Below, piece by piece: positions 49,316-57,354 of a DNA stretch of 57,840 bases (its first letter is position 1; each line of letters opens with the position of its first letter). The DNA is from Acetobacteraceae bacterium (GTDB lineage: Bacteria > Pseudomonadota > Alphaproteobacteria > Acetobacterales > Acetobacteraceae): contig JANXMB010000136.1 of assembly GCA_025354865.1 (NCBI GenBank), positions 1-57,840 on the forward strand, in the 5' to 3' direction. A program made the position numbers and the translations under genes. The notes beneath the pieces are model-generated. The model was given only the letters and a program-made list of their open reading frames with translations, was not told the DNA's origin and did no database searches.

Positions 49316-49564
49316 TCATATGTACTCTACCGGATTAAAGGTTAAGGCCCGGTTAAATATTCCGGGTGTTTTTATGGATTCGGGCGGTTCTCCGGGTAGG
49401 GCGGCGGGGCTGACCCCGGCGAGGCGCGCGGCCTCGGCGATTGCCAGCCCGGCCGGGCCTTTGGCGGCGATCAGTTCCAGCGCGGCATCCAGCAATGCCT
49501 CCCGCAGGTTGCCGTGGTGATAGCCGCGTCGTTCGAATCCGCTGCCCTTCTGGTTCCAGCTCAT
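49316..49564 (-). pseudogene. TetR-family regulator, N-terminal remnant
   Basis: From ATG 49564, 82 residues. YHHGNLREALLDAALELIA followed by AGLAIAEAARLAGVSPAA is a good match to the TetR DNA-binding domain start. After SPAA the sequence switches to LPGEPPESIKTPGIFNRALT, unlike the expected (A/P)YRHF helix, and stops: the rest of the DNA-binding and the ligand-binding domain are missing. Lower-GC sequence at the join suggests deletion or replacement. Most likely inactive. Confidence 0.7.
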
Positions 49565-49715
49565 GACGGGGAGTCTTATGTTCACCGTGGTGCCGCGCGC
49601 CAGTACCATCGCGGCCAAAGAGCGATCTATCCGATCGGGCGCTGCCGCCCGGCCCGATATGACAGGCCGCCGCAAGCCGTGCGATAGTCGCGGCATAAAA
49701 ACGGGATGACACAGA

Positions 49716-50708
49716 ATGCGCCACATCGTCGGGCTGGTCATGCTGCTGCTGGCCGCCATCCCCGCGCGGGCCGAGGTCGCGGAAATCCGCATCGCGCAAC
49801 AAACCAGCATCGCGTTCCTGCAATTCAACGTCATGAAACACCGGGGCCTGATCGAGAAACACGCCAAGGCACTGGGTCTGCCGGAGGTGAAAGTCACCTT
49901 CGCCACCTTCAACGGCTCCGACGCGATGAACGATGCGCTGCTGTCCGGCGCGGTCGATATCGTGTCCGGCGGGCCGCCCGGCCTGCTGGTGGTGTGGTCG
50001 AAAACCTGGGGCAGCACGCAGGAGGTGCGCGGCGTTGCGGCGCTGTCGCAGCTCTATTGGCTGCTGAACACCCGCAATCCCGCCGTCAAACACATCCGCG
50101 ATTTCACCGCGACCGATCGTATCGCCATGCCGGCGGTGAAGGTCGCCGCGCAATCGGTGCTGTTGGAAATGGCGGCCGCGAAGGAGTGGGGCGATGCGGC
50201 GTACGAACGGCTCGACCCGCTGACCCTGTCGATGTCGCCGTCCGACGCCACCGCCGGGCTGCTGTCGGGCGGCGGCAATTTCAACAGCGCCTTCACCGTC
50301 CCGCCGTTCCAGGAAATGCAGTTGAAGGACCCGGCGATCCACACCGTGCTGGATTCCCGCGAGATCCTCGGTGCCTCCTCCACGTCGTTCGCCTGGGCCA
50401 CGAAGAAATTCCACGACGCCAACCCGAAAGTGTTTCTGGCGGTGGTGAACGCGATGAAGGAAGCATCGGACTTCATCATGGCGAACAAGAAGGAGGCGGT
50501 GGCGTTCTATCTGGAAGACACCCGGGCCAAGGTGGATCCCGACCTGATCCTGCGGGTGCTGGAGGACCCGGGCAACGTCTACAGCGCAACGCCGTTGGGC
50601 GCGATGAAATGGGCCGATTTCATGCACCGTGTCGGCCGCAACAAGGTCGCCGCGAAGTCCTGGCAGGATCTGTTCTGGCCGGAGATCTGGGACCTGCCGG
50701 GCAACTGA
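49716..50708 (+). CDS. ABC transporter substrate-binding protein, nitrate/sulfonate/thiamine-precursor type
   Basis: 330 residues. Signal peptide MRHIVGLVMLLLAAIPARAE (cleavage about residue 19-20), then EIRIAQQTSIAFLQFNVMKHRGLIEK, the start of SsuA/TauA/NrtA-like binding proteins, with LLSGAVDIVSGGPPGLLVVW and KKFHDANPKVFLAVVNAMKEA further on. It should bind a small organic or anionic ligand in the periplasm. No permease or ATPase is nearby; the hyf-like operon begins 78 bases after it on the same strand. It may be part of another transporter encoded elsewhere or a sensor partner. Confidence 0.82.
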   Translation: MRHIVGLVMLLLAAIPARAEVAEIRIAQQTSIAFLQFNVMKHRGLIEKHAKALGLPEVKVTFATFNGSDAMNDALLSGAVDIVSGGPPGLLVVWSKTWGSTQEVRGVAALSQLYWLLNTRNPAVKHIRDFTATDRIAMPAVKVAAQSVLLEMAAAKEWGDAAYERLDPLTLSMSPSDATAGLLSGGGNFNSAFTVPPFQEMQLKDPAIHTVLDSREILGASSTSFAWATKKFHDANPKVFLAVVNAMKEASDFIMANKKEAVAFYLEDTRAKVDPDLILRVLEDPGNVYSATPLGAMKWADFMHRVGRNKVAAKSWQDLFWPEIWDLPGN

Positions 50709-50786: not shown

Positions 50787-52565
50787 GTGAGCGACCCTCT
50801 TTTGCCGCTGCTTGTTGGGATCGTGGCTGCCCTGTCGGTGCTGGGGGCGGTGGCCGGTTTCGTTGCGCGTGCCGCTCGGCAGGCCATCGGCTTTGCCGGC
50901 GCCGGCCTCGGCGGCCTCGGCTGCCTGCTCGCGCTGCTGGCCCTGTTGCTCGACGCCGCCCCGGCTTCGCTCGATTTTCCCATCGGGCTTCCGGGCTATC
51001 CGTTGCGCCTGACCCTCGATCCGCTCGCCGCGTTCTTCCTGCTGCCGGCGTTCCTGACCGGCACCGCCGGCATCGCGTTCGCGGCAGAGGTCGGTGCCAG
51101 CGCACCGCGTGCCAGCCTCGCCGGGCTGTGCTGGTGCCTCGCCGGCACGGTCCTGACCTTGCTGGCCGAGGATGGCGCGACCCAGGCGATCGGCCTGTGC
51201 CTCGCGGGCGGGGCGATCTGGGCAAGCGGGGAGGCCGGGCGCCCGCGCGCCCTGCAACTGGGGGCGACCGTTCTGGCGGCGCTCTGCGTGCTGGCCGCCA
51301 AAGCGGTGCCGGACCGGCCGATCGCGGTATTCGGGCTGGCGGCGATCGCGGCGGGGGCCTTGGCCGGCCTGCCGCCGTTCCACCGCTGGTCCATCCAGGC
51401 CCATCGCGCCGCGCCATCCCGAGCGGCGGCGCTGCTGTCGGGGGCGATGCAGCCGTTGGCGGTTTATTTGGCGATCCGGATGGTGTTGGGCCGATCCGAC
51501 CAGCCGCTCGCCTGGTATTGGGCAATGCCGCTGTTGGTTGCGGGGGCAGTCGCGATGTTCCAGGGCGCCTGGCGTGCGGCGCAGGAGACCGATGTCGATG
51601 CTTGCCTCGCGGCGCTGGCCGAACGGCAGGGCGGGCTGGTGGCGACCGGCATCGGTCTGGTTCTAATCGGGCGGGCGGTGGACCTGCCGGGAATGACGGT
51701 GCTGGCGGAGGAAGCGGTTTTCCTCCTGGTCCTGACGCAGGCGGTTTGCGGCACTTTGGGGCAACTGGCGGCCGGCGCGGTGCGCGATGGCGCGGGTAGC
51801 GGCCGGTTGCAGGCGCTCGGCGGGCTGATCCACACGATGCCGACGGTCGCGATCGGCATGGCCGCGACGCTGTTCGCGCTGTCCGCCGCGCCGGCCGGTG
51901 CCGGTTTCGCCGCCCTGTGGCTGCTGTTTCAGGCCCTGCTGGCGGCACCCCGAGCGCTGGCGTTTGCGCCGGTTGCGGTTGTTTTGGCGGTGTCGGCGGG
52001 GTTGTCCGGCGCGGCGGCGCTGCGATTGTTCGGCGTCGCCTTCCTCGGCCGGCCCCGCATCCCCCGCTCGGCTGGCGCCACCGACGTTGCCAAACCCGCG
52101 CGACCGGCACTGCTGGTGCTGGCCGGGTTTGCCGTGCTGCTGGGGCTGTTCCCCGGCCTCGCCGCGCTGCTGGCCGGCGGTGCGATCCGCCAACTCGACG
52201 CGATCGACCTCGGTGATCGCGTCGGCGTCCTCGGGCTGGAGGGGTACCCGGTCCTGCCGCAAGTCCTGCTGACGGTGGTGCTTGCCGGCTTGGTATGGCT
52301 GGCCTTGCGCCGAGGCAACGGGCCGGCGCCGCGTTTTGGCTCCGCCTGGAACGACGGTTTCGCGCCCGCACCGCCGTGGTTGCCGTTTGGCGACCCGCTG
52401 ACCCAATGGTCCGGCGCGGGCCTGTTACCGCGCCTTCCCCGCCTGCCGGTGCGATGGCTGAGGCACTGGCCCAAAAGCTGGAGCACCCAGCATGCCGCAA
52501 TGCAGGCGCTGCTGGGTGCATTGGCGGCGTTCCTGGCGACCCTGCTTTGGCTGGGCGCGGCATGA
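50787..52565 (+). CDS. HyfB-like / NuoL-type antiporter-like membrane subunit of an Ehr-like complex
   Basis: 592 residues from a GTG start, about 14-16 membrane helices. The best recognised block is LAGLPPFHRWSIQAHRAAPSRAAALLSG (about 193-219), the conserved PPFH.W...A...APS.V.ALLSG of HyfB, HycC and NuoL/M. The transmembrane glutamate block of helix 5 (usually WELMSL-like) is not visible; the corresponding segment is AEDGATQAIGLCLAGG (about 127-142). A second half ending in a hydrophilic loop and a final helix (LLGALAAFLATLLWLG) follows. First gene of the 50,787-56,963 operon; its stop overlaps the next start (ATGA). Proton translocation is expected from family but may be impaired. Confidence 0.8.
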   Translation: MSDPLLPLLVGIVAALSVLGAVAGFVARAARQAIGFAGAGLGGLGCLLALLALLLDAAPASLDFPIGLPGYPLRLTLDPLAAFFLLPAFLTGTAGIAFAAEVGASAPRASLAGLCWCLAGTVLTLLAEDGATQAIGLCLAGGAIWASGEAGRPRALQLGATVLAALCVLAAKAVPDRPIAVFGLAAIAAGALAGLPPFHRWSIQAHRAAPSRAAALLSGAMQPLAVYLAIRMVLGRSDQPLAWYWAMPLLVAGAVAMFQGAWRAAQETDVDACLAALAERQGGLVATGIGLVLIGRAVDLPGMTVLAEEAVFLLVLTQAVCGTLGQLAAGAVRDGAGSGRLQALGGLIHTMPTVAIGMAATLFALSAAPAGAGFAALWLLFQALLAAPRALAFAPVAVVLAVSAGLSGAAALRLFGVAFLGRPRIPRSAGATDVAKPARPALLVLAGFAVLLGLFPGLAALLAGGAIRQLDAIDLGDRVGVLGLEGYPVLPQVLLTVVLAGLVWLALRRGNGPAPRFGSAWNDGFAPAPPWLPFGDPLTQWSGAGLLPRLPRLPVRWLRHWPKSWSTQHAAMQALLGALAAFLATLLWLGAA

Positions 52566-53461
52566 CCCTGCTGCTCGGCATCGTTGCGCAACTGTTGCAC
52601 ATCGGGCTGGTCCTGCTGGCCGCGCCGTTGCTGGCCGGTGCTTTGTCCGTGGCGCCAGCCTGGCTTGCCGGGCGCACCCCGCCGCCCTTCGCCCAGCCCT
52701 GGCGCGACCTGCTCCGGCAGCTCCGCAAACAGGCGATCCGGAACGAGGCCGCGTCGATCGTCGGGCGCATGGCGCCGACGGTATCGGTGGCGCTGGCGGG
52801 GGTGGCGGTCTGCCTGATCCCGTCCTTCGCGCTCGGCATGGTCTCCGCCCCCATGACGGACCTACTGAGCCTTCTGGCGGTGCTCGGTTTGGGCCGCACG
52901 ATGCGGGTGCTCGCGGTGTTGGATACGGGCAACGGGGCAGGCGGGGCCGCCGCCGCCGCGTCCGGCCGGCTGGCGGTATTGGCCGAGCCGGCGGTGTGGC
53001 TGGCGGTGTTTGCGCTGGCGCTGCTGGCCGGGGGCGGCACGCTCGATCGCATCGTCGCCGCCCGGCTCGACGGTGGCATGGCGCCCGGTGCGGCGGCGCT
53101 GGCTGGGGCCGGTTTGGCGCTGCTGGCCTGGGCCGCCTGCGCCGCGCCGCCGATGGACACGGCACGCAGCGGGTCCGATCTCGTGTTATCCCAGATCGCC
53201 GATGCGCTGAACCGTCTGGCATGGTGCGACCTGATCGGGGCGCTGGTGCTGCCGTACGGCATGGCAACCGCCGAGGCCGGGCCGCTCGCCTGGGCGGTCG
53301 GTCTGCTGGCCTGGGTCGGCCGACTGCTGCTGGCGGTGGGGTTGCTGTCCGCCGGTCTGTCTGTTGCCTCGGCCCCGCGTGTGCGATCGGCGGTCGTTCT
53401 GGCGCTGGTTCTCGCCGTCCTCGGGGCGGTGCTGGCTTTGGCCGGCAAGGGGGGCGCGTGA
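52562..53461 (+). CDS. HyfC-like / NuoH-type membrane subunit
   Basis: 299 residues with about eight hydrophobic segments. QPWRDLLRQLRKQAIRNEAA (about 43-62) matches the cytoplasmic loop of HyfC/HycD/NuoH that contacts the peripheral arm. The later loop reads PPMDTARSGSDLVLSQIADALNRL where the family has P(V/F)D...HLELTMIHEA..LEYSG, so the acidic E-channel residues are mostly lost. It overlaps the HyfB-like gene by four bases and its stop overlaps the next small reading frame by one (TGATG). Confidence 0.78.
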   Translation: MTLLLGIVAQLLHIGLVLLAAPLLAGALSVAPAWLAGRTPPPFAQPWRDLLRQLRKQAIRNEAASIVGRMAPTVSVALAGVAVCLIPSFALGMVSAPMTDLLSLLAVLGLGRTMRVLAVLDTGNGAGGAAAAASGRLAVLAEPAVWLAVFALALLAGGGTLDRIVAARLDGGMAPGAAALAGAGLALLAWAACAAPPMDTARSGSDLVLSQIADALNRLAWCDLIGALVLPYGMATAEAGPLAWAVGLLAWVGRLLLAVGLLSAGLSVASAPRVRSAVVLALVLAVLGAVLALAGKGGA

Positions 53462-53529
53462 TGGCCGAGCGGCGGGGTTTGCCGGGGGATCGGCCTCATG
53501 CGAGCGACCGCCGGGGGCGCCGGGCATGA
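53461..53529 (+). CDS. 22-codon coupled reading frame inside the operon
   Basis: Reads MAERRGLPGDRPHASDRRGR followed by one more residue and stop. Its ATG shares a base with the stop of the HyfC-like gene (TGATG), and its stop shares four bases with the ATG of the HyfE/F-like gene (ATGA), so it would be perfectly coupled on both sides. Very basic and hydrophilic. It could be a leader that relays ribosomes or the debris of a lost subunit gene; translation is not proven. Confidence 0.35.
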   Translation: MAERRGLPGDRPHASDRRGRRA

Positions 53530-55055
53530 GCGGTTGGGTTTTGGCGCTGTCGTTCGGCATGCTCGCGACCGGGCGGCGGATGCCGGTGCTCGGGATGGCG
53601 GGCGGGCAAATCGCGATCCTGACAGCAGCGGCGATCGCCCGAGGCGCCTATCTGCCGGCCGCGATCCTGGCACTCTCGAACGCGGCGGTGCTGGTCGGGT
53701 TGTTCTGGGCGATGCCGGGGGTGCGCGCGGCCGCGCCTCGGTTGGGTGGGGTGGCGGCGCTGGGCAGCGGCGGGGTTCTGGCGATGCTGGCAGCCCCGTT
53801 CGGGGTGCCGTTGGCGGTGGTGGCGACGGGGATTCTGCTGGTCGCGATCGCGCGCGACCGGATCGTGCAGGCGGCTGGATTGCTGACGCTGCAAGCGGGG
53901 CTTGTCGCGGCTGCATTGGACGGGGCGGTTGTCCAGCCGAGTGCCGCGCTGCTGCCGATTCTGCCGGGCTTGGCGTTGGCCGCGCTCCGCTGGCGCGGCC
54001 GATTGGTGGTGTCGGCGCCCCCTCGTTGGACCGCATGGGCTGGTGCGTGCGCCGGCATCGGGCTGGCGTTGGCGCTGCCGATCCTGTCGTTGGACGCCAT
54101 TCCGAACGTGCGGCAGGACCGAGCGGGGGTGTTGGCGGCGGTGTTGGTGGCGCTGGCGGCGGCGGTGCCGACGCGGGAACAGGCGCCTCTGCCGCGCTGG
54201 TGCGCGATCGCCGGCGGGTTGGTGGCGGCTTTGGCGGACGACCCCATCGCGGTTTGGGCAGGGCTGCTGCTGGCCACCGCCGCAGCCCTGCTGCCCTACG
54301 CAAGCACTCGACGCGGGCGCCTGCCGCTGGCCGCCGTTGCGCTCGGACTGACTGCCTGCGGCTGGTTGCAGCCGGCGTCCCCGGTTGCCGCCGGCTGCGT
54401 GCTGGTCGGCGCGGCGGCTTTGGCGGTTGCGGTGCCCGATCTGCTGGCGGTCCTGCCGTTCGTCGCGTTGCGCGCGGCCGGGCCGGAACTGGTGGCACTC
54501 GGCATCGCCGCGGTGCTGGCGTGCGGGGCGGCGGCGGTGTGGGTGGCAAACGAGCGGACCCGTCCGGCGTGGCTGGCGTTTGGGCAAACGGGGGTGGTTG
54601 CGATGCTGTTCGGGTTGCATACGGCGGATACCGTCTTCGCGGGGGCAGTGTTGGCGGTATTGCTGGTCCTCGCGCAGGCCGTCGGCACGGTGTCGCGCTG
54701 GCAGGGTGCGGAGGCAGCGGGGCGGTCCCCGTCGCAGGGGTTGGTGCCGCTGCTGGCTGCGGCAGGCCTTGTCGGATTGCCGCCGTTCGGGGTGTTTCCC
54801 GGTCTGGCGCTGGCGATCCTGGCGATCGGCCGGCATGCGCCCGGGCTGCTGTTGGGGCTGCTGCCGGGCTTGGCGGCGCTCGGCTGGGCGGCGATCGTCC
54901 ATCTGCCGGCGCCCGGTTCGGCTGCCCGCGTTTGGCCACCGCGCGTCTTCCCGTGGGCCTGGATACCCTTGGTCGCCGCGCCGATCCTGGGCTTCTGCAT
55001 GCCCGACACGATCGCGGCTTGGCTGCACGCTTTGGCGCAGGAGGTCGCTCGATGA
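53526..55055 (+). CDS. HyfE/HyfF-like fused membrane subunit
   Basis: 509 residues, almost wholly hydrophobic (about 14-16 helices). The first third (to about residue 165) resembles HyfE, with RDRIVQAAGLLTLQAGLVAA (NuoK-like). The last third contains WLAFGQTGVVAMLFGLH and GLVGLPPFGVFPGLALAIL, the C-terminal GxPPFG.F motif of HyfF/NuoN-type subunits. So it appears to be a HyfE joined to a shortened HyfF. Start ATG 53526, overlap with both neighbours (ATGA at 55052). It would form part of the membrane arm. Confidence 0.65.
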   Translation: MSGWVLALSFGMLATGRRMPVLGMAGGQIAILTAAAIARGAYLPAAILALSNAAVLVGLFWAMPGVRAAAPRLGGVAALGSGGVLAMLAAPFGVPLAVVATGILLVAIARDRIVQAAGLLTLQAGLVAAALDGAVVQPSAALLPILPGLALAALRWRGRLVVSAPPRWTAWAGACAGIGLALALPILSLDAIPNVRQDRAGVLAAVLVALAAAVPTREQAPLPRWCAIAGGLVAALADDPIAVWAGLLLATAAALLPYASTRRGRLPLAAVALGLTACGWLQPASPVAAGCVLVGAAALAVAVPDLLAVLPFVALRAAGPELVALGIAAVLACGAAAVWVANERTRPAWLAFGQTGVVAMLFGLHTADTVFAGAVLAVLLVLAQAVGTVSRWQGAEAAGRSPSQGLVPLLAAAGLVGLPPFGVFPGLALAILAIGRHAPGLLLGLLPGLAALGWAAIVHLPAPGSAARVWPPRVFPWAWIPLVAAPILGFCMPDTIAAWLHALAQEVAR

Positions 55056-56434
55056 CTCGGATTGCCGCCATTCTGCACGGCACGCCGCAGCAACCGTCTC
55101 GCCCCTGGCCCCGGTTCGTCGTCTCCCGCGCGCAATGGTCGGCCCTGCTGCGGGAGAACCTGACGCTGCTGGGCGCCTGGGCCGATACCACGCATGTGCA
55201 TGCCCTGTTCGCCAACAACGCGACACCGGACCCGCCAACGGACCCACTCGCATGCCTGATCGTCTCGATCGAGGTCGAGGTCGGATTCTATCCCGCTTTG
55301 TCCCCCGTCCATCCGGGTGCCGCGTGGTTCGAGCGGGCCATTCACGATCTTTGGGGCCATAAGGCTGCCGATGGGGAGGATCGGCCCTGGCTCGATCACG
55401 GCCACTGGCCGCAGACCCACCCGCTGGCCGCCCGTCCCGGGCCGCGTCCGCCCGCCGCCGATCCGCCCGAATTCGTCGAGGTCGCGGGCAGCGCGCTCAT
55501 GCAATGGCCGATCGGCCCGATCGGTTCCGGCATCGCCGAAGCCGCGCATCTGCGCCTGACCCTGGACGGCACCGCCATCGTGCGGGCGGAGGCGCGGCTG
55601 GGCTACACCCATAAAGGCGTCCTGACCCTGATGCGCGGCAAATCCCCCCGCGTCGCTGCTCGGTTTGCCGCTCGATTGGCCGGGGATGCCACCGTCGCAC
55701 ACGCTATTGCGTTCGCCCGAGCGACCGAGGCCGCGCTGGACATCGCGCCGCCGCCGCGCGCGATCGCCCTGCGTGCGGTCATGGCGGCGCTGGAACGGAC
55801 GACGACCCGGCTGGACGACCTTGGCACCCTCGCCGCGCTGCTGGGGGCGACGCATCTGCATGGGCAATGCGGGCTGTGGCAGGAATATCTGCGGCGCGGG
55901 CTGGCGGCGGCCTTCGGACACCGTATGTGTATGGATTGCGTGGTGCCCGGCGGCGTGGCCGGCGACGCCGATCCCATGGGATTGTCTGCCCTGCGTCCGA
56001 TCCTGGAGGCGCTGCTGGACGACCTCCCCTCCATCCGCGCCGGTTTCGCCCGCGACAGCCTCGCCGCTCGGCTGACCGGCCTGGGGCGCTGCGCGACCGA
56101 GGGCGATGCCGCCGACCGCTGCGCCCGCCGGCTGGATGCCATCGCCGCCGACGTGGCGCTGGTCGTGCCGCTGCTGTCCGACCTGCCGGAAGGACCGGCG
56201 AACGTCGCGCTGCCGTCGCACAGCGGGGAGGGGTTGGGCCTATCGTCCTCGGCGCGCGGCGATATCCGGCACTGGATTCGGATCGATAACGGACAGATTG
56301 CGGCGGCGTTTCCGATCGATCCCGGCTGGCACCGCTGGCCGCTGGCGGAAGCCGGGCTGGTCGGGGCGGAAGCGGCGGACGCCGAAGCCATCTGCGTGTC
56401 GTTCGGCCTGCCGGTCTCGGGGATGGATTTATGA
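55052..56434 (+). CDS. HyfG-like (NuoC-NuoD fusion type) large subunit lacking nickel ligands
   Basis: 460 residues. N-terminal NuoC-like part (about 1-130) with FYPALSPVHPGAAWFERAIH, then NuoD/hydrogenase-large-like part with GPIGSGIAEAAHLRL (about 155-169) and RLGYTHKGV (about 182-190). Where [NiFe] enzymes have the first CxxC (RVCGICG), this protein has AARLAGDATV (about 206-215); the C-terminal DPCxxC is also absent, the chain ending SFGLPVSGMDL. One CxxC (CMDC, 293-296) lies in an unrelated position before VVPGGV. Thus no nickel site, as in complex I NuoD and Ehr proteins. Four-base overlap with the preceding gene. Confidence 0.82.
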   Translation: MTRIAAILHGTPQQPSRPWPRFVVSRAQWSALLRENLTLLGAWADTTHVHALFANNATPDPPTDPLACLIVSIEVEVGFYPALSPVHPGAAWFERAIHDLWGHKAADGEDRPWLDHGHWPQTHPLAARPGPRPPAADPPEFVEVAGSALMQWPIGPIGSGIAEAAHLRLTLDGTAIVRAEARLGYTHKGVLTLMRGKSPRVAARFAARLAGDATVAHAIAFARATEAALDIAPPPRAIALRAVMAALERTTTRLDDLGTLAALLGATHLHGQCGLWQEYLRRGLAAAFGHRMCMDCVVPGGVAGDADPMGLSALRPILEALLDDLPSIRAGFARDSLAARLTGLGRCATEGDAADRCARRLDAIAADVALVVPLLSDLPEGPANVALPSHSGEGLGLSSSARGDIRHWIRIDNGQIAAAFPIDPGWHRWPLAEAGLVGAEAADAEAICVSFGLPVSGMDL

Positions 56435-56447
56435 AGAGGGCGATCCG

Positions 56448-56963
56448 ATGATGCGCTGGCCCTTGCCGCCCCGTTTACCGGCGGCCGAACCGGCCGGTCC
56501 GGTGGATCGCGAAACCGTTGCGTCGCTGGTGGCGCGGATGGACGCGGCAGCGCAGCGGCGGCTGGGGCGCGGTCTGGCGATTCGCCATGTGAACACTGGC
56601 AGTTGCAATGGCTGCGAGCTGGAAACGCGGGCGCTGACCGGGGTGCTGTACGAGCTGTCGCGCTTCGGGCTGCGCTTCGTCGATAGCCCCGCCCATGCCG
56701 ATGTGCTGCTGGTCACCGGCCCGCTGACCCAGAACCTGCGCCGCGCGCTGGAGCAGGCATGGGACGCAGTGCCGGACCCGAAATGGGTTGTGGCGCTGGG
56801 CGATTGCGCGGTGGATGGGGGGGTGTTCAAGGGCAGCTATGCGACGCTGGGCGGCACCGGCAACGCGGTGCCGGTGGACCTGACGATCGGCGGCTGCCCG
56901 CCATCGCCGTCGCGCATCCTAGCCGGGCTGCGGGCCTTGCTGGAGGCGAATAGCGCCCGTTAG
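56448..56963 (+). CDS. HyfI/NuoB-like Fe-S small subunit
   Basis: 171 residues. Four cysteines in the order expected for the proximal [4Fe-4S] cluster: Cys53 and Cys56 in GSCNGCELE, Cys120 in LGDCAVDGG and Cys150 in IGGCPPSPSRIL. The CxxCE form follows hydrogenase small subunits (GSCNGC) rather than NuoB (CC). The N-terminal 40 residues are extra. It would sit at the junction between peripheral and membrane arms next to the HyfG-like subunit. ATG 56448 (or 56451) follows AGAGGG; 13 bases after the HyfG-like gene. Last gene of the operon; no ferredoxin-type subunit is present. Confidence 0.88.
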   Translation: MMRWPLPPRLPAAEPAGPVDRETVASLVARMDAAAQRRLGRGLAIRHVNTGSCNGCELETRALTGVLYELSRFGLRFVDSPAHADVLLVTGPLTQNLRRALEQAWDAVPDPKWVVALGDCAVDGGVFKGSYATLGGTGNAVPVDLTIGGCPPSPSRILAGLRALLEANSAR

Positions 56964-57168: not shown

Positions 57169-57354
57169 TCAGTGCACTGCGGCGTGGGTGGCTTTCGCCT
57201 TGTGCTTCGCCGGCGCCTTGTGGGCGCTGACCTTCTTCACGGGATGGTGGGTTTTCGCCTTGTGTGGCTTCGCCATGGCGGGGGTGGCGACGAGGCCCGC
57301 GATCGGCAAAGCGAAAGCGAGCGCGACGAACAGGGGAAAGCGCTTCAGGGTCAC
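57169..57354 (-). CDS. Small exported His/Lys/Ala-rich protein (Asr-like)
   Basis: 61 residues from a GTG start at 57354, with GGAG about nine bases before it. A signal peptide (TLKRFPLFVALAFALPIAGL..., cleavage near AMA, about residue 24) leads to a short tail, KPHKAKTHHPVKKVSAHKAP and more, made almost only of Lys, His, Ala and Pro. This resembles the acid-shock RNA protein Asr and similar basic periplasmic proteins. An in-frame ATG at 57411 would add 19 residues without RBS support. Converges on the hyf-like operon. Confidence 0.65.
   Translation of the reverse strand: MTLKRFPLFVALAFALPIAGLVATPAMAKPHKAKTHHPVKKVSAHKAPAKHKAKATHAAVH

What the first reader, a model, noticed from the sequence alone, without database searches (positions are those of the whole stretch)
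50787..56963. Reduced Ehr-like (Hyf-type) complex without nickel ligands
Five overlapping genes encode HyfB-, HyfC-, HyfE/F-, HyfG- and HyfI-like subunits. The large subunit lacks both CxxC pairs that bind the NiFe centre (AARLAGDATV replaces RVCGICG), while the small subunit keeps Cys53, 56, 120 and 150. Known Ehr complexes have this loss but an unassigned partner. Here the set is further reduced: no ferredoxin-type subunit, no quinone or NADH module, and key membrane Glu motifs in HyfB- and HyfC-like subunits are eroded. What electron donor or ligand it uses, and whether it pumps ions at all, is open.
Basis: partly seen in the sequence, partly recalled or inferred. Interest (0 to 1): 0.78.

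Follow-up and report, generated by a model that had tools for sequence, protein, structure and literature searches.

The report
Hydrogenase-like complex with dismantled ion pump
A set of bacterial genes related to hydrogenases and respiratory complex I has lost its metal site and the known residues for moving ions across the membrane, yet evolution still preserves it, which suggests that an energy-converting machine was rebuilt for a new, unknown job.

Summary
The operon is real: five intact genes (HyfB, HyfC, a HyfE–HyfF fusion, HyfG, HyfI types; 50787–56963). Its nearest known kin is the Hyq/Ehr complex (Azorhizobium hyqBCEFGI), which also lacks nickel ligands and a ferredoxin subunit, so those points are not special. 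The membrane part is. In 23 of 23 congeneric operons whose HyfB could be read, all eight conserved charged residues are gone and the HyfC loop aligned with E-channel acids is deleted; 27 of 28 other loci keep all eight. HyfE+HyfF shrank from about 700 to about 525 residues. The four cysteines of the [4Fe-4S] cluster remain in 19 of 19. The group is one clade; outside the genus there is a half-eroded relative. dN/dS is 0.06–0.46, so this is not pseudogene decay. Twenty-six of 33 congeneric genomes carry it, seven with no intact Hyq copy found. No hypD was found in the window's genome, so a NiFe site is unlikely. Best reading: a nickel-free complex with a dismantled pump, kept for its membrane-docked iron–sulfur module (electron transfer or redox sensing). 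The partner is unknown. No structure could be predicted.

The parts
50787..52565 (+). HyfB/HyqB-like antiporter-type membrane subunit, 592 aa (GTG start); all 8 conserved charged residues lost (window residues 138 C, 192 L, 223 P, 271 D, 280 R, 318 Q, 322 G, 377 L)
52562..53461 (+). HyfC/HyqC-like membrane anchor (NuoH type), 299 aa; 16-residue conserved loop deleted, junction near 53158/53159
53526..55055 (+). Fused and shortened HyfE–HyfF, 509 aa; no Pfam or NCBIfam hit
55052..56434 (+). HyfG/HyqG-like large subunit (NuoC + NuoD type), 460 aa; no CxxC; lacks a segment near residue 345 that 12 of 19 eroded rows keep
55673..55693 (+). RLAGDAT, in the place of RVCGICG (first nickel-ligand pair)
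56390..56431 (+). C-terminal ICVSFGLPVSGMDL, in the place of the second CxxC and of Hyq CNKSFNCSYSGHDL
56448..56963 (+). HyfI/HyqI-like small subunit (NuoB type), 171 aa; Cys53, 56, 120 and 150 kept

Best explanation
It is a paralogue of the alphaproteobacterial Hyq (Ehr) complex that lost, step by step within Acetobacteraceae, the known ion path of its membrane arm. Shown by sequence: the protonatable axis of HyfB is gone, the HyfC loop aligned with the E-channel is deleted, HyfE+HyfF are cut by about a quarter, there are no nickel ligands, the [4Fe-4S] ligands and much of the HyfG–HyfI module remain, and the genes are under purifying selection. Inferred: the product is still a membrane-anchored complex whose membrane subunits serve only as a dock. 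The cytoplasmic HyfG–HyfI pair carries one [4Fe-4S] cluster beside a pocket that keeps two Hyq-type acids. It passes electrons between an unknown soluble partner and a small molecule (possibly quinone) without pumping ions, or it senses redox state through the cluster. Identity as a pump-dead Hyq derivative: about 0.9. Uncoupled electron transfer as the actual job: about 0.4.
For: HyfB: 0 of 8 conserved charged residues kept in 19 of 19 plus 4 of 4 further congeneric operons; all 8 kept in 27 of 28 other loci (the 28th, L061, has a broken HyfB) and in E. coli, and in L062. HyfC loop deleted in the same 19 and 4. Columns at least 95% identical in intact Hyq that at least 90% of eroded rows keep: I 30 of 45, G 64 of 141, B 29 of 123, C 14 of 89. 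Four cluster cysteines in 19 of 19. Pocket acids: the position of E. coli HyfG E195 is Glu/Asp in 19 of 19, and the Hyq Asp at position 245 is Asp/Glu in 19 of 19. Eroded operons form one clade (quick trees, SH-aLRT only) with a half-eroded relative L101, which keeps the TM5 Glu of HyfB and of HyfF but has lost most of the others. dN/dS (NG86, 7 pairs): I 0.06–0.18 (5 pairs), G 0.12–0.28, B 0.21–0.43, C 0.20–0.46, E/F 0.27–0.37. 26 of 33 congeneric genomes carry it, 7 of them with no second Hyq-type large subunit found. No hypD hit in the own genome. PMC9474812 (passages) places HycD glutamates in the E-channel and reports that substitutions along it strongly affect H2 production.
Against: No partner gene, expression data or structure. 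In E. coli HycC the Lys of the Glu/Lys pair is already Leu208, and single mutants E135A, K239A and K336A do not significantly lower H2 production (PMC9474812, passages), so a missing charge does not by itself prove that nothing moves. The eroded HyfB has gained charges of its own: Arg at the E310 position in 18 of 19 and Asp at K301 in 13 of 19. Large-subunit changes (canopy position Asn in Hyq, Gly/Ala here; loss of the β1–β2 His; loss of a further segment in the window's subclade) may also have removed any substrate pocket, which would favour a sensor or scaffold. The operon is dispensable: 7 of 33 genomes lack it, with an empty site in G017.
Confidence: 0.55

Rival explanations
1. Redox or gas sensor / scaffold: the cluster is read out through protein contacts and there is no catalysis; the large-subunit pocket is vestigial.
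For: Canopy position Asn in 27 of 27 canonical but Gly/Ala in 19 of 19 eroded; both C-terminal Hyq cysteines lost in 19 of 19. The Asp four places before the first cluster cysteine of HyfI is Asn in 19 of 19 eroded against Asp in 26 of 26 canonical. No donor or acceptor gene recognised in the operon.
Against: HyfG stays under clear constraint (dN/dS 0.12–0.28) and keeps the β1–β2 acid and Asp245, which a mere scaffold need not. No regulator or kinase gene that recurs beside the operon was noticed in the gene clusters, though most neighbours were not annotated.
Confidence: 0.3
2. A Hyq/Ehr complex that still pumps ions, by residues not recognised here.
For: Same gene order B-C-E-F-G-I; FHL works with a partly broken axis (PMC9474812 passages); a new Arg at the HyfB E310 position in 18 of 19 and Asp at K301 in 13 of 19.
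Against: All eight HyfB residues and the HyfC loop are gone together in 23 of 23 and HyfF is barely recognisable; residues newly fixed in at least 95% of eroded rows and absent from intact ones are Pro, Leu, Ala, Gly, Asn and Gln, none charged.
Confidence: 0.05
3. Hybrid or inhibitor: the eroded subunits join, and modulate or block, the intact Hyq complex of the same cell.
For: 19 of 26 carriers also hold a second Hyq-type large subunit.
Against: In 7 of 26 carriers no second copy was found, four of them 97–100% complete (G028, G015, G011, G021); the block has its own small and large subunits.
Confidence: 0.07
4. Non-functional operon in decay.
For: Fast-evolving membrane subunits; the block is absent in 7 of 33 genomes.
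Against: Open frames for B, C, G and I in 19 of 19 loci, dN/dS 0.06–0.46, cluster cysteines invariant.
Confidence: 0.03

Closest known systems
Hyq 'endo-hydrogenase', hyqRBCEFGI of Azorhizobium caulinodans (PMC2650096, PMC3357923)
   Same: Same six-subunit plan and order B-C-E-F-G-I, no ferredoxin subunit, no CxxC pair in the large subunit, four cysteines in the small subunit. (Compared through the papers and through Mesorhizobium, Azospirillum and other relatives; the Azorhizobium sequence itself was not fetched.)
   Different: Here E and F are fused and shortened, the ion-path residues are lost, the HyqG Cys491 and Cys497 equivalents are lost (0 of 19), the small helix-turn-helix gene seen upstream of several intact operons was not seen, and the own genome has no nifH hit.
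Ehr complexes (energy-converting hydrogenase related; Geobacter EhrA, C, L, S; comammox Nitrospira; Margulisbacteria)
   Same: Relatives of group 4 hydrogenases; lack of the metal ligands is stated in PMC10284858 and PMC6349859, unknown or uninvestigated role in PMC10284858 and PMC7894505 (passages).
   Different: PMC6349859 describes antiporter-like subunits and suspected charge translocation; here the charged residues are lost.
E. coli hydrogenase-4 / FHL (Hyf; Hyc)
   Same: Homologous B, C, E, F, G and I subunits.
   Different: E. coli Hyf has the nickel ligands, HyfA, HyfD, HyfH and all eight HyfB charges.
Respiratory complex I (NuoB/CD/H/J/L/M)
   Same: NuoB-like cluster subunit, NuoC–NuoD type large subunit, NuoH-like anchor.
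   Different: No NADH module and no NuoI in the operon; the ion-path residues are lost.

Membership tests
Hyq/Ehr complex (nickel-free group 4 relatives) | Gene set B-C-E-F-G-I in this order | tested here: met
   19 of 19 eroded loci, the window among them; E–F fused in 9 of 19
Hyq/Ehr complex (nickel-free group 4 relatives) | Large subunit lacks both CxxC pairs | tested here: met
Hyq/Ehr complex (nickel-free group 4 relatives) | Four small-subunit cysteines | tested here: met
   19 of 19
Hyq/Ehr complex (nickel-free group 4 relatives) | Family-wide HyqG cysteines at the C terminus (Azorhizobium Cys491, Cys497; PMC3357923) | tested here: not met
   canonical 27 of 27 and 26 of 27, eroded 0 of 19 and 0 of 19; columns matched by position from the C terminus; the third, Cys258, could not be placed with certainty
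Hyq/Ehr complex (nickel-free group 4 relatives) | Antiporter-type subunits with a charged axis; conserved HyfC loop | tested here: not met
   0 of 8 residues in 23 of 23; loop deleted in 23 of 23
Hyq/Ehr complex (nickel-free group 4 relatives) | Descent: nested inside the tree of Hyq-type complexes | tested here: met
   (quick trees)
[NiFe] hydrogenase group 4 | Two CxxC pairs binding Ni-Fe | tested here: not met
[NiFe] hydrogenase group 4 | Hyp maturation (hypD) in the genome | tested here: not met
   no hit in the own genome (99.25% complete); 9 of 33 congeneric genomes, 6 of 26 carriers
Respiratory complex I | NADH module, NuoI, three antiporter-type subunits | tested here: not met
   five genes only in the operon
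Proton or sodium pump | Measured ion transport | not testable with these tools
   needs vesicle assays

The most novel reading that the evidence does not exclude
A complex-I-superfamily machine in which evolution removed the known ion-translocating path (HyfB axis, HyfC E-channel loop, most of recognisable HyfF) but preserved the membrane-docked [4Fe-4S] electron module by selection, giving a new, non-pumping redox or sensor complex. A living intermediate (L101) suggests the order of dismantling: Lys and His residues of TM7, 8 and 11 and the TM12 Glu before the TM5 Glu.
Probability: 0.6. Interest if true: 0.78.

Novelty: new variant of a known kind. Interest (0 to 1): 0.66.

Why it matters
Which residues of complex-I-like machines pump, and whether the redox half can live without the pump half, are open questions. 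Here nature seems to have made the experiment: one clade keeps the redox half under selection and discards the known pump residues, with a half-way form (L101) and an intact relative (L083). Knocking out or purifying this complex next to the intact Hyq copy would show what the HyfG–HyfI module does on its own, and so help with the unknown function of Ehr/Hyq complexes in general.

Tried and rejected
Nickel site in another reading: rejected; no CxxC in the large subunit, and related loci align through the same place. Link to nitrogen fixation, as for Azorhizobium hyq: not supported; nifH over the cut-off in 5 of 33 congeneric genomes, no hit in the own. Link to a formate dehydrogenase or other donor: none recognised; only the recurring neighbours (hopanoid genes, a small secreted protein) and a few others were annotated, most flanking genes were not. 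Association with the small secreted protein (57169–57354, −): first looked strict (24 of 26 eroded loci, no canonical locus), but 3 of 7 genomes without the operon keep the gene, so it is mostly shared position. A HyfE or HyfF profile built from intact relatives does not find the window protein; profile–profile comparison does. Hydropathy counts of transmembrane helices gave little contrast for B and C (whose last part failed and was repeated). Structure prediction of the EF protein and once of the large subunit: every attempt was answered 'busy, 100 jobs waiting', so there is no fold evidence.

Rows set aside before counts: L044, L047, L060, L062 and L070 (partial loci) were not in the alignments; read later where possible, L062 keeps all eight HyfB charges, L047 the three that its fragment covers, and L047, L060 and L062 the HyfC loop acids. 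L061 (broken HyfB), L038 and L063 (truncated) were left out. In one search, L113 is the same genome as L066, and L114 and L116 were not cleanly readable. Left out of the tree: L038, L050, L057, L061 and rows lacking HyfG or HyfI; 15 named loci (truncated, duplicate or thinned distant ones) and rows lacking either subunit. The count of 26 carriers rests on HyfB and HyfC for 23 and on the large subunit alone for 3 (G031, G016, G020). Outside the genus, of 18 family genomes with an EF-profile match I fetched 11: one half-eroded (G139), one with no HyfB charge left (G163), six with all eight (one of them the same genome as L040), three not readable; seven were not looked at, so erosion outside the genus may be commoner than I know.
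Full report
What is there. The window is one whole contig (G000:C150) of a genome of 4.76 Mb, 99.25% complete. The nearest relatives found by the large subunit are titled Acetobacteraceae, one of them Rhodopila sp.. At 50787–56963 (+) lie five open genes: HyfB-like (592 aa), HyfC-like (299 aa), one protein of 509 aa in the place of HyfE and HyfF, HyfG-like (460 aa) and HyfI-like (171 aa from ATG 56448). Pfam supports B, C, G and I. NCBIfam gives hydrogenase-4 subunit B and complex I subunits H, D and B as best hits, all below the curated cut-offs, and nothing for EF. Profile comparison against intact relatives maps EF residues 1–135 on HyfE (probability 94%, E 1.2e-7) and 167–505 on HyfF (98%, E 5.3e-13), with long gaps in the HyfF part. 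So it is a fused and shortened HyfE–HyfF.

The nearest known system. The intact relatives (Mesorhizobium, Azospirillum, Rhodovulum, Magnetospirillum and others) have the order B-C-E-F-G-I. The gene calls show no further gene inside the block except in L061 (one 243-aa ORF) and L038 (one 92-aa ORF on the other strand). This is the plan of Azorhizobium hyqRBCEFGI. PMC2650096 (passages) reports a growth defect of a hyq deletion under diazotrophy and control by NifA. [quoted passage not shown] it also reports H2 uptake and evolution by the complex in vivo. Such nickel-free relatives are elsewhere called Ehr (PMC10284858, PMC6349859; passages), with unknown function; Geobacter Ehr is uninvestigated (PMC7894505, passages). 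Marreiros 2013 was seen only in reference lists. Hence absence of nickel ligands, ferredoxin subunit and NADH module is normal for this family. The own genome holds two further Hyq-type copies: L071 with all eight HyfB charges and a small helix-turn-helix gene upstream, and L070, cut by a contig end.

What is unusual: the known ion path is gone. I aligned HyfB, HyfC, HyfG and HyfI of 19 loci like the window and of up to 29 others with E. coli Hyf. At the eight charged positions conserved in HyfB (E. coli E142, K221, K252, K301, E310, H348, K352, E407) the 19 keep none; 27 of 28 others and E. coli keep all eight (the exception, L061, has a broken HyfB). Four more congeneric operons keep none (L107, L109, L110, L112); L062 keeps all. 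New charges have appeared: Arg at the E310 position in 18 of 19 and Asp at K301 in 13 of 19. In HyfC, 16 residues (NPATHLELTMVHEAMV in intact relatives) are deleted in the same 19 and 4. They align with the loop where, by my reading, FHL HycD carries E-channel glutamates (E-channel residues from PMC9474812, passages). HyfE+HyfF together have a median of 525 residues in 18 eroded loci against 702 in 24 intact pairs. HyfC still keeps Lys60, Asp104, Arg116 and Asp125 positions in 19 of 19, which fits a role as anchor.

What is kept. Of columns at least 95% identical in intact Hyq (27 loci; 26 for I), at least 90% of the eroded rows keep the residue in 30 of 45 in I, 64 of 141 in G, 29 of 123 in B and 14 of 89 in C. 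The four cysteines of HyfI are present in 19 of 19. In HyfG the acid at E195 of E. coli HyfG (taken as the β1–β2 loop acid, HycE E193) is Glu or Asp in 19 of 19, and the Asp that all 27 intact Hyq have at position 245, between the places of the lost cysteines, is Asp in 18 and Glu in 1. Lost or changed in all 19: both C-terminal Hyq cysteines, the His of the β1–β2 loop, the position taken as canopy Asp529 of HycE (Asn in 27 of 27 intact, Gly or Ala here), and in HyfI the residue four places before the first cluster cysteine (Asp in 26 of 26 intact, Asn in 19 of 19). The window's subclade (7 of 19 rows) also lost a segment of the large subunit near residue 345.

Origin and selection. A quick tree of HyfG+HyfI puts 20 eroded rows in one clade (SH-aLRT 100), nested among Acetobacteraceae. 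With family members added, 23 eroded rows form one clade (99), and two outsiders join it (99): L101 and L106. L101 is half-eroded: its HyfB keeps the TM5 Glu and the Glu at E310, has Arg at K301 and has lost the other five; its HyfF keeps the TM5 Glu, has Arg at K307 (as intact L039 and L115 do) and has lost the other seven of nine listed charges; the HyfC loop is present but altered. L106 has lost all eight HyfB charges and has a shortened loop. The C–G distance falls from 2089–2260 nt (26 of 28 intact loci; outliers L061 and L081) through 2005 (L101) and 1798 (L106) to 1399–1904 (19 eroded loci) and 1619–1947 (four more). Pairwise dN/dS (NG86, seven close pairs, dS 0.47–1.46) is 0.06–0.46, lowest in I and G. 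This speaks against decay.

Distribution. All 33 held genomes of the genus have a Hyq-type large subunit at E ≤ 1e-40. By score and motif, 26 carry the eroded type (23 confirmed on HyfB and HyfC, three on the large subunit alone), 19 of these with a second copy of the intact type by score, and 7 without; 7 genomes have only the intact type (assignment of the named loci L031–L035 and L063 to G handles rests on equal contig lengths). In G017 and G019 the neighbours are in place and the operon is missing, with no remnant found; no genome with only part of the block was seen apart from those cut by contig ends. Of 299 genomes drawn from the family, 24 match the EF profile at E ≤ 1e-6, 18 of them outside the genus; the best of these (4e-17, G198) has an intact pump. 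I fetched 11 of the 18: G139 (L101) is half-eroded, G163 (L106) has no HyfB charge left, six are intact and three could not be read. Of 289 genomes drawn from the class only two weak matches besides the own were found. A far-eroded EF could escape this profile. HypD, taken as needed for NiFe maturation (recalled), is found in 9 of 33 genomes, 6 of the 26 carriers, and not in the own genome.

Mechanism. Shown: loss of nickel ligands, loss of the known protonatable path, retention of the cluster ligands, purifying selection, inheritance as a block. Inferred: a membrane complex in which B, C and EF are only an anchor, and HyfG–HyfI carry out electron transfer with an unknown partner, or report redox state, without pumping. 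Against a firm conclusion: FHL HycC tolerates loss of several of the same charges for H2 production (PMC9474812, passages); new charges in HyfB could serve an unknown path; no structure could be predicted because the queue was full at every try; no partner gene is linked.

Novelty. No paper in the held library was found to describe this erosion: searches (listings). That covers open-licence PubMed Central only. I rate it a new variant of a known kind (Hyq/Ehr), with a plausible change of function.

Noticed in passing
57169-57354 (−): Small Lys/His/Ala-rich protein with a signal-like start (61 aa, no Pfam or NCBIfam hit), convergent with the operon. One match per genome; found in 25 of 26 genomes with the eroded operon and in 3 of 7 without.
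   Followed up: partly
L033, L034, L035, L063, L068, L069, L074-L079, L082, downstream of the operon: Hopanoid genes hpnD, hpnC, hpnB, hpnA lie next to the operon, on the other strand, in 13 of 20 eroded loci (representatives over NCBIfam cut-offs); genes of the hpnA cluster also lie near the intact loci L036, L037, L040 and L059.
   Followed up: partly
49716-50708 (+): SsuA/NMT1-like substrate-binding protein gene, 78 nt upstream of hyfB, with no ABC partner genes beside it; not seen beside the operon in relatives.
   Followed up: no
49316-49609 (−): Short ORF with a partial TetR_N match just under the gathering score, possibly a truncated regulator.
   Followed up: no
L071:3172-3417 (+): Small helix-turn-helix gene upstream of intact Hyq operons in the own genome and in several others (cluster 10); a possible hyqR, not seen beside eroded operons.
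   Followed up: partly
L061:2814-4971: HyfB of an otherwise intact Hyq operon (Siccirubricoccus) is split into two frames.
   Followed up: no
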